Below, piece after piece: positions 7,593 to 13,844 of a stretch of DNA of 64,000 bases. This DNA is from Spiractinospora alimapuensis (lineage in GTDB: Bacteria; Actinomycetota; Actinomycetes; Streptosporangiales; Streptosporangiaceae): positions 3,682,010-3,746,009 of the forward strand of contig NZ_CP072467.1 in NCBI RefSeq assembly GCF_018437505.1. Direction: 5' to 3'. Position 1 is the stretch's first letter, and every line of letters begins with the position of its first letter. The position numbers and the translations under genes are program-made. The notes beneath the pieces are model-generated. The model was not told where the DNA came from, ran no database searches, and saw only the letters and a list, made by a program, of their open reading frames with translations.

Positions 7593-8210
7593 GTGCGCCT
7601 GTGGCTGAACCGGCGGGATGACAGCTATTACGAGATGTTCGCCGCGTCGGCGGACAACCTCGTCGTCGCCTCGCGGCTCCTGGTGGACCTGATCAGTGAT
7701 GGGTCCGATCGGGAGGCCATCACCGAGAAGCTCCGCACCTGTGAACACACTGGTGACGAGCACACCCACGCGATCCTGCGCCGACTGAACCAAAGCCGGG
7801 CGACCCCGTTCCAGCGTGAGGACATCTACCGCCTCGCCTCGTGCCTGGACGACGTCGTGGACTCAATGGAGGCCGCGGGGGACCTGATCGACCTCTACCA
7901 GCTCGAGCAGCTCCCCAAGGGGATCGTGGACCAGGTGGAGGTACTGGAGCGCGCCGCCGAGCTGACGGCGGGCGCGATGGCCCGACTGCGCGACGTCGGG
8001 GACCTCGCCGACTACTGGATCGAGATCAACCGACTGGAGAACCAGGCGGACCGGATCTACCGTCGCCTGCTCGCCCGCCTGTTCAACGGGACCTATGACG
8101 CGTTGACGGTGCTCAAGCTCAAGGACGTCATCGAGGAGCTGGAGAGCGCGGCGGACGCCTTCGAGAACGTGGCGAACACCGTGGAGAGCATCGCGCTGAA
8201 GCAGTCCTGA
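7593..8210 (+). CDS. DUF47 family PhoU-like protein
   Basis: All-helical 205-residue protein of the DUF47 (TIGR00153-type) family, related to PhoU. It is normally the accessory regulator of a low-affinity Pit phosphate permease. Typical features are RRDDSYYEMFAASADNLV at the start, the CEHTGDEHTH metal-binding-like segment, and repeated Glu/Asp helices such as INRLENQADRIYR. The GTG at 7593 is chosen for the GGGAG site 8 nt upstream and because family members start just before the RRDD motif. No Pit permease gene is adjacent here. Instead the gene converges on pstB. Confidence 0.9.
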   Translation: MRLWLNRRDDSYYEMFAASADNLVVASRLLVDLISDGSDREAITEKLRTCEHTGDEHTHAILRRLNQSRATPFQREDIYRLASCLDDVVDSMEAAGDLIDLYQLEQLPKGIVDQVEVLERAAELTAGAMARLRDVGDLADYWIEINRLENQADRIYRRLLARLFNGTYDALTVLKLKDVIEELESAADAFENVANTVESIALKQS

Positions 8211-12741: not shown

Positions 12742-13404
12742 ATGGGCGATGAGCGGGTGAGAGCCGGAACACCGGAGGTTCGAGCTTCGGACGCGGAGCG
12801 GGACGCGCTGGTCACGCGGCTCGGTGAGGCGATGGCCGAAGGGCGGCTGGACGTCGCGGAGTACGAGGAGCGAGTGGACGTCGCCCTCGCCGCGCGCAGC
12901 CGTGGCGAGCTGGAGCGGTTGACCGACGACCTGCCGGCGCCGACACCCGCCAAGCGAGACGGGCCGATGCAGGGCGCGGAGCGCCTCACCGATAGTGTCC
13001 CGACGAGCAGCACGGCCATCTGCGTCATGGGCGCCGCGGTCCGCGACGGCACCTGGACCGTGCCGAAGAAGTTCACCGCCCTCTCGGTGATGGGACACGC
13101 CGAGATCGACCTGCGTGAGGCCCAGTTCACCGCCAAGCACACCACGATCCAGGCCCACTCGCTCATGGGTTCGGTCGAGGTCGTCGTTCCCGACGACGTG
13201 CACGTGCGCGTCGAGGGAGTCGGCGTGATGGGCGCCTTCTGGATGGACGACGACCCCGCCGACGTCCCCGCCGACGTGCCGATCGTCACCGTCACCGGCA
13301 TCTCCCTCATGGGCGCCGTGTGGAGCAGCACCCAACCCCGCGAACACCAGAAGCCCCCGAAGAAACGCTGGTGGCACCGACGCAAGAGCGTCACCGAGGG
13401 CTAA
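12742..13404 (+). CDS. DUF1707 (SHOCT-like) and LiaF-like C-terminal protein
   Basis: A 220-residue soluble protein. The N-terminal DUF1707 domain (about 13-65) has VRASDAERDALVTRLGEA and GRLDVAEYEERVDVALAARS. The C-terminal half has repeated small beta units each with a SVMG/SLMG-type turn (ICVMGAAV, LSVMGHAEID, HSLMGSVEV, VGVMGAFW, ISLMGAVW), as in the LiaF/DUF2154 cell-envelope stress family. A basic tail (PPKKRWWHRRK) ends it. There is no membrane helix. A role in envelope stress is by family analogy. Confidence 0.85.
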   Translation: MGDERVRAGTPEVRASDAERDALVTRLGEAMAEGRLDVAEYEERVDVALAARSRGELERLTDDLPAPTPAKRDGPMQGAERLTDSVPTSSTAICVMGAAVRDGTWTVPKKFTALSVMGHAEIDLREAQFTAKHTTIQAHSLMGSVEVVVPDDVHVRVEGVGVMGAFWMDDDPADVPADVPIVTVTGISLMGAVWSSTQPREHQKPPKKRWWHRRKSVTEG

Positions 13405-13532
13405 CCACCCTCGGGCGAGTCCCTGTGGCGCAGCCGCACCGGCCAGCCGGAACCACGCCGCACCGAACACCCCGCGCCTGTGCTTCTGGGCGGGGTTCAC
13501 ACCTGCCGATACTGCGCGCCCACGTCACCCAG

Positions 13533-13622
13533 CGGTCCATCCCCGCGGGCGCGGGGCTTACCGCCCGGCCCACGCCCGCGGATGGTGGGAGGCCGGTCCA
13601 TCCCCGCGGGCGCGGGGCTTAC
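13533..13622 (-). CRISPR. Two-repeat orphan CRISPR mini-array, type I-E-like
   Basis: Two identical 29-bp repeats (13533-13561 and 13594-13622) are separated by a 32-bp spacer (13562-13593), a period of 61 bp typical of type I-E. On the minus strand the repeat begins GTAAGCCCCGCGCC and ends GCGGGGATGGACCG, with the same internal CCCCGC/GCGGGG palindrome and ACCG end as E. coli type I-E repeats. By that orientation the leader would lie above 13623. No cas gene is in the window. The rest of the gap 13405-13844 holds no gene, only a hairpin with 7-bp arms at 13714-13732. Confidence 0.85.
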
Positions 13623-13844
13623 CAGGGCGCGACCTGGGCTTCTTTCCGGGCGTTATCGTTCCGCGATATGCGGGGCGAGTCTATGCACCTCATGATGCCC
13701 CAATAGGCCGGAAAGTGGACGGAAAACGTCCACATTGTTCGTCGGTGTGCTTGCTCGATCGCGGAATCGCGGACGGGTTGTGTCCGCGATGACGGTGGAG
13801 CGCGGTCACGGGTGTTCGTTGGTCACGGGGGCCCGCGTTCCGCC

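What the first reader, a model, noticed from the sequence alone, without database searches (positions are those of the whole stretch)
13533..13622. Orphan type I-E CRISPR mini-array with two identical repeats and one spacer
Identical 29-bp repeats with an exact 61-bp period and a 32-bp spacer, and no cas genes in 64 kb. The identity of the repeats suggests the array is recent or maintained. It may use Cas proteins from elsewhere in the genome, or be an isolated remnant of a larger array.
Basis: partly seen in the sequence, partly recalled or inferred. Interest (0 to 1): 0.6.

Follow-up and report, generated by a model that had tools for sequence, protein, structure and literature searches.

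The report
Short CRISPR array with intact leader
This is a genuine but very short type I-E CRISPR memory array, with its own leader, in a bacterium whose chromosome carries related arrays in many places and the matching Cas genes more than a megabase away; it is a real and fairly ordinary part of a dispersed bacterial immune system.

Summary
In detail: two identical 29-nt repeats, 61-bp period, 32-nt spacer at 13533-13622. "Orphan" holds only within the window. The 5.86-Mb chromosome has at least eight other arrays of this repeat family, a complete I-E operon with cas1e and cas2e at 4.840-4.850 Mb and a second I-E interference operon at 4.881-4.889 Mb. Neither spacer has a convincing target. 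Eight relatives keep the flanking genes 1.1-1.4 kb closer together, without the array. Best reading: a short leader-bearing array, inferred to be served in trans by the distant Cas genes; a new member of a known kind. Seen in passing and more interesting: a divergent, hairpin-keeping mini-array between cas3 and cas8e whose seed and PAM match the same intergenic region, a candidate self-repressing RNA.

The parts
13472..13500 (-). degenerate outermost (trailer-end) repeat; only the leader-side half is preserved
   Evidence: exact 61-bp register; 12 of 14 leader-side bases match the best repeat variant, reached at 6 of 127,705 other window positions; over all 29 bases 17 match, reached at 484
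13501..13532 (-). second, older 32-nt spacer implied by the degenerate repeat
   Evidence: length 32 by position; first 20 nt not found in IMG/VR
13533..13561 (-). repeat (transcribed GTAAGCCCCGCGCCCGCGGGGATGGACCG)
   Evidence: predicted hairpin -12.9 kcal/mol
13562..13593 (-). spacer, 32 nt
   Evidence: no other copy in the own genome within 3 mismatches; no convincing target
13594..13622 (-). leader-proximal repeat, identical to the previous one
13623..13800 (-). CRISPR leader
   Evidence: leader-only blastn: 70.8-77.4% identity over 155-178 aligned columns to the leaders of the arrays at 5.312, 4.894, 4.906 and 5.333 Mb, E 3e-23 to 2e-13; the other four arrays not reached at E 1e-3; alignment of 11 places, two of which lack the leader
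13715..13733 (.). perfect leader palindrome GTGGAC-N7-GTCCAC, 111 bp from the repeat in the transcribed direction
   Evidence: at -109 to -111 in 6 of 9 leaders, at most one arm mismatch; strict pattern occurs 3 other times outside the leader in the 64-kb window
13769..13787 (.). perfect leader palindrome GCGGAC-N7-GTCCGC, 165 bp from the repeat
   Evidence: in 9 of 9 leaders, at -163 to -165 in 8 and -176 in 1, at most one arm mismatch
12742..13404 (+). neighbouring LiaF-like gene lying in the same extra interval as the array
   Evidence: weak NCBIfam LiaF_C_term hit, 34.2 bits against a cut-off of 57; no tblastn match in the 80 loci

Best explanation
A genuine, short type I-E CRISPR array: leader, two intact repeats, one spacer between them, one older spacer and a half-decayed terminal repeat, on the minus strand of an ordinary chromosomal intergenic region. 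The leader would drive a short pre-crRNA; Cas6e from one of the two distant I-E operons would cut it at the repeat hairpins, Cascade would carry the crRNA, and Cas1e-Cas2e from the complete operon could add spacers at 13622/13623. It is one of at least nine dispersed leader-bearing arrays that share the Cas machinery. Shown: repeat and leader homology, register, presence of open cas genes. Inferred: expression, processing, acquisition, immunity.
For: Same-family arrays across the chromosome. Leader homology beyond the repeats to four arrays and palindromes at fixed distance. Leader-proximal TAAC and CAGGTC-like elements also seen by eye in many leaders of related genomes. Operon A: cas3, cas8e, cse2, cas7e, cas5e, cas6e, cas1e and cas2e. 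Operon B, a second I-E operon. The repeat palindrome CCCCGCNNNNGCGGGG fits the actinomycete I-E rule given in PMC4762764 (passages). Distant arrays being shorter holds for most types (PMC12814883, section 15).
Against: No protospacer found for either spacer. Only two spacers and a decayed end, so it may be idle. Four of the eight other leaders show no significant leader-only blastn match to this one. Cas6e of operon A scores just under its curated cut-off (44.0 against 45.2 bits). No expression data.
Confidence: 0.72

Rival explanations
1. An inert remnant: the leader-end stub of a once longer array, no longer transcribed or extended.
For: Only two spacers; outer repeat half decayed; arrays of 27 and 29 repeats occur elsewhere in the genome; remnants exist, such as a leader fragment at 4.9909 Mb and a lone repeat at 5.233 Mb.
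Against: The two inner repeats are identical and both leader palindromes perfect; degenerate terminal repeats are also seen in longer arrays here.
Confidence: 0.2
2. A regulatory mini-array (crRNA-like RNA) whose spacer guides Cascade to a host promoter through a partial match.
For: Single intact spacer; such RNAs are known in type I systems (start of the abstract of PMC10989794); a candidate exists in this genome's own cas operon.
Against: Repeats are canonical and identical rather than divergent; a full leader is present; AAG plus the first 9 nt of the spacer has no match in the whole genome; A(A/T)G plus the first 8 nt of either spacer has none in 226 kb of own-genome sequence, both strands.
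Confidence: 0.04
3. A neo-CRISPR made by off-target Cas1-Cas2 integration at a chance repeat-like site.
For: Two repeats flanking one spacer is the shape such an event leaves (recalled, not looked up); eight relatives lack the array.
Against: The leader is homologous to those of other arrays for over 150 bp, which off-target integration does not copy; a decayed outer repeat exists.
Confidence: 0.02
4. Chance palindromic repeats in GC-rich DNA.
For: GC-rich region.
Against: Repeat family, leader and cas genes in the same genome.
Confidence: 0.005

Closest known systems
Type I-E CRISPR-Cas of Streptomyces avermitilis (PMC4762764, passages seen)
   Same: I-E; actinomycete palindromic repeat; leader directly before the first repeat; 32-bp protospacers with an AAG PAM are reported there
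   Different: There two arrays flank the cas genes; here the array is more than 1.1 Mb from cas, and the genome holds at least nine such arrays and two I-E interference operons
Cas-distant short arrays (PMC12814883, passages and section 15; PMC5294841, passages)
   Same: Short array far from cas, with its own repeat variant
   Different: This one keeps a leader clearly homologous to those of other arrays
Other arrays of this genome at 0.323, 1.780, 2.487, 4.697, 4.894, 4.906, 5.312 and 5.333 Mb
   Same: Repeat family; distal leader palindrome
   Different: Repeat loop and 5' part differ from array to array; this is among the shortest
crRNA-like self-repressing RNAs (CreR type; recalled, plus the start of the abstract of PMC10989794)
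   Same: Two intact repeats, one spacer
   Different: No self seed and PAM match found; canonical repeats and a full leader

Membership tests
Type I-E CRISPR array | 29-nt direct repeats with hairpin, about 61-bp period, 32-33-nt spacers | tested here: met
Type I-E CRISPR array | leader next to the first repeat, homologous to leaders of cognate arrays | tested here: met
   significant by leader-only blastn to 4 of 8 other arrays
Type I-E CRISPR array | cognate I-E cas genes in the genome | tested here: met
Type I-E CRISPR array | cas genes adjacent (usual, not required) | tested here: not met
   nearest operon found about 1.14 Mb away
Type I-E CRISPR array | spacer derived from mobile DNA | tested here: inconclusive
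   intact spacer: no convincing target in phages or plasmids; both spacers: no exact 20-nt word in IMG/VR
Type I-E CRISPR array | crRNA produced and processed | not testable with these tools
   no transcriptome data held
Regulatory crRNA-like RNA (CreR type) | spacer seed plus PAM match at a host promoter | tested here: not met
   0 matches of AAG plus 9-nt seed in the whole genome; 0 of A(A/T)G plus 8-nt seed in 226 kb of own-genome sequence; other PAMs not tried for this spacer
Neo-CRISPR by off-target integration | no homologous leader | tested here: not met
   leader homologous over 150 bp

The most novel reading that the evidence does not exclude
Leader-plus-array units are being copied to ordinary intergenic sites around this chromosome, and the array here is one such outpost, still able to acquire. 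The two palindromes, 54 bp apart and at a fixed distance from the repeat, would be docking sites for an unidentified factor that marks dispersed arrays for a shared Cas1-Cas2.
Probability: 0.15. Interest if true: 0.5.

Novelty: new member of a known kind. Interest (0 to 1): 0.25.

Why it matters
It shows that an apparent orphan mini-array can be a leader-bearing member of a dispersed I-E network once the whole chromosome is examined. The leader palindromes are a concrete test bed for what directs spacer acquisition in actinobacteria. The mini-array inside the cas operon is a separate lead on self-control of I-E systems.

Tried and rejected
Spacer origin. Intact spacer: phages gave 5 weak records, none covering 80% of the spacer, best E 3; plasmids gave 99 weak records, of which 20 are listed, 7 cover at least 80% (81-89% identity), lowest listed E 0.7. 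IMG/VR, exact first 20 nt: 0 for both spacers. The older spacer was not searched in phages or plasmids. No target.

Spacer as an inverted copy of the repeat: local score 12.5, reached by 1.6% of shuffles; two other spacers of 79 score 12.5 and 13.0. A fold test ranked this spacer 71 of 79 for loss of the upstream hairpin, so unremarkable; the test is weak because the palindromic repeats also pair with each other. Dropped.

System-level spacer hits: the first 20 nt of three leader-proximal spacers from other arrays gave 0, 1 and 0 IMG/VR matches. The one match stops at exactly 20 nt and has no AAG before it, so I count it as chance. The other spacers of the genome were not searched.

Named relatives by the LiaF-like protein: 109 candidate stretches, none confirmed; a GlnR-like query was used instead. 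Same-genus comparison was impossible: only this genome of the genus is held. In 29 LiaF-like loci of relatives there was no repeat with 6 or fewer mismatches and no match to the window's GNAT, GlnR-like or secreted-protein gene, so no array-LiaF linkage was shown.

Cas3-cas8e mini-array in relatives: a strict scan found none in 30 loci, from 30 of the 60 other genomes with a cas8e hit; the same scan does find the own-genome copy (control). A looser scan gives many pairs but also 13 in the window (one of them the array itself), so most are noise; one in L170 looks real by its hairpins.

The degenerate outer repeat was scored at three lengths, 29, 14 and 12 bases, after it had been seen: 484, 6 and 50 of 127,705 positions do as well. 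Against the window's own repeat it matches 15 of 29, no better than a neighbouring off-register place at -121 (15 of 29); the case rests on the leader-side half, the register and the 32-nt spacing.

Full report
Observation. The two copies at 13533-13561 and 13594-13622 are identical, 61 bp apart, with 32 nt between. No other 25-mer in the window recurs 55-75 bp away.

Exactly 61 bp outside the left copy, at 13472-13500, lies a degenerate repeat. Its leader-side 14 bases match the best of seven repeat variants at 12 positions, a score reached at only 6 of 127,705 other positions on both strands of the window. At full length the match is weaker (17 of 29, reached at 484 of 127,705), so only the leader-side half is preserved. 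The stretch between, 13501-13532, is again 32 nt. Degenerate outer repeats also occur in other arrays of this genome. To the right, 13623-13800 aligns with the leaders of other arrays: leader-only blastn gives 70.8-77.4% identity and E from 3e-23 to 2e-13 to four arrays, plus a leader fragment at 4.9909 Mb. The leaders of the other four arrays (0.323, 1.780, 2.487, 4.697 Mb) did not reach E 1e-3 in that test, although all four carry the distal palindrome. The leader fixes the direction: transcription on the minus strand, with the newest spacer at 13562-13593.

The leader. Two palindromes stand at fixed distances: G(C/A)GGAC-N7-GTCC(G/T)C about 164 bp from the repeat in 9 of 9 leaders (one of them at 176) and a GTGGAC-N7-GTCCAC type about 110 bp away in 6 of 9, allowing one mismatch between arms (the 1.780-Mb array was anchored on a degenerate repeat). 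The window copies are both perfect. The strict pattern occurs 3 other times in the 64-kb window and once outside the leaders in the other array loci. It was not found in 27 loci of related genomes, but leader-proximal TAAC and CAGGTC-like elements are visible by eye in many of them. What binds the palindromes is unknown.

The genome. The window is part of a 5.86-Mb single contig. Eight further arrays of this repeat family lie at about 0.323, 1.780, 2.487, 4.697, 4.894, 4.906, 5.312 and 5.333 Mb, from three repeats (some degenerate) to 29; a script counted 79 spacers including the older one here. There is one lone repeat at 5.233 Mb, and a related repeat type at 2.4816 and 4.9907 Mb. Repeats are uniform within most arrays and differ between arrays mainly in the hairpin loop and in the bases before the hairpin.

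Cas genes. Operon A, 4.840-4.850 Mb: cas3, cas8e, cse2, cas7e, cas5e, cas6e, cas1e and cas2e. Each passes the cut-off of an NCBIfam model except cas6e, 44.0 against 45.2 bits. Operon B, about 4.881-4.889 Mb: cas3, cas8e, cas7e and a Cas6-type protein by Pfam (the Pfam-to-Cas names CT1975 = Cas7e and CRISPR_assoc = Cas6e are recalled); cse2 and cas5e are assigned only by position and look. The cas1e and cas2e models found one copy each, both in operon A. Both operons are more than 1.1 Mb from the window array. Which one serves it is not known.

Setting. Of the 11 best GlnR-like loci (Nocardiopsis and near genera), 8 also hold the GNAT gene; in those the GlnR-to-GNAT distance is 1414-1671 bp against 2794 bp in the window. 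The other 3 lack a GNAT match and were not used. The surplus is the LiaF-like gene plus the array. No repeat with 7 or fewer mismatches lay in that interval, and no LiaF-like match was found in any of the 80 loci (a 7-mismatch hit in L051 lies elsewhere). So the interval was gained here or lost in the relatives, which belong to other genera (only one genome of this genus is held). Six proteins flanking five of the other arrays are ordinary chromosomal types: two protein kinases, a TPR protein, a DEAD/DSHCT helicase, an amino-acid permease, a nitroreductase/phosphoribosyltransferase fusion; none is a mobile-element gene. The flanks of the other three arrays were not scanned.

Prevalence. In 150 genomes sampled from the family, 65 matched the array-plus-leader query, mostly through the repeats, and 61 carried a cas8e (both counts include this genome). 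One of 27 related loci (L149) is a two-repeat array with a degenerate outer repeat and a leader, much like this one. Such short arrays are therefore not unique.

Targets. Neither spacer has a convincing target (for the intact one; 31, 32 for both). The intact spacer has no second copy in its own genome within 3 mismatches. AAG plus its first 9 nt does not occur in the genome, which speaks against a self-regulating role.

Conclusion. The array is a true, short, leader-bearing I-E array, most likely served in trans. Presence of parts is shown; expression, processing and acquisition are inferred. Literature seen: passages of PMC4762764 and PMC5294841, passages and section 15 of PMC12814883, the start of the abstract of PMC10989794, and search listings. 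It is a new member of a known kind.

Noticed in passing
L019:8336-8425 (own genome 4843335-4843424), between cas3 and cas8e: A divergent two-repeat mini-array with a 32-nt spacer. Both repeats differ from the array repeats but keep the hairpin through paired changes. Of five PAMs tried, AAG plus the spacer's first 8 nt matches once in the same intergenic stretch, at L019 8120-8130 (minus strand), overlapping a promoter-like TTGCGA-17-TATGGT that starts at 8129: a candidate self-repressing crRNA. AAG plus this seed occurs twice in 452,020 positions of own-genome sequence, the other at L019 4821.
   Followed up: partly
L170:1035-1125 (unnamed relative G139), upstream of its cas8e: A similar-looking divergent two-repeat element, about 375 bp before the cas8e match, found only by a loose scan; both repeats fold into hairpins. 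No A(A/T)G plus 7-nt seed match found in the 1,560 bases scanned. It may mean that such elements recur at I-E cas operons in this family.
   Followed up: partly
L221:11157-18666 (own genome 4881156-4888665): Second type I-E interference operon (cas3, cas8e, cas7e, Cas6-type by Pfam; cse2 and cas5e by position); the only cas1e and cas2e hits of the genome lie in the other operon.
   Followed up: partly
L159:1150-1480 and L014:1615-1705: A second, related repeat type (GTCTGTTCCCCGCGCGCGGGGATGGTCC and similar); at L159 it abuts a fragment of the window-type leader.
   Followed up: no
L010:2600-2650 (own genome about 4906600): A degenerate repeat and the start of a second leader-like stretch just beyond the leader of the 4.906-Mb array, suggesting tandem arrays.
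   Followed up: no
window 12742-13404: LiaF-like gene in the same extra interval as the array; closest family relative found is 57% identical, with no CRISPR repeat in its locus.
   Followed up: partly
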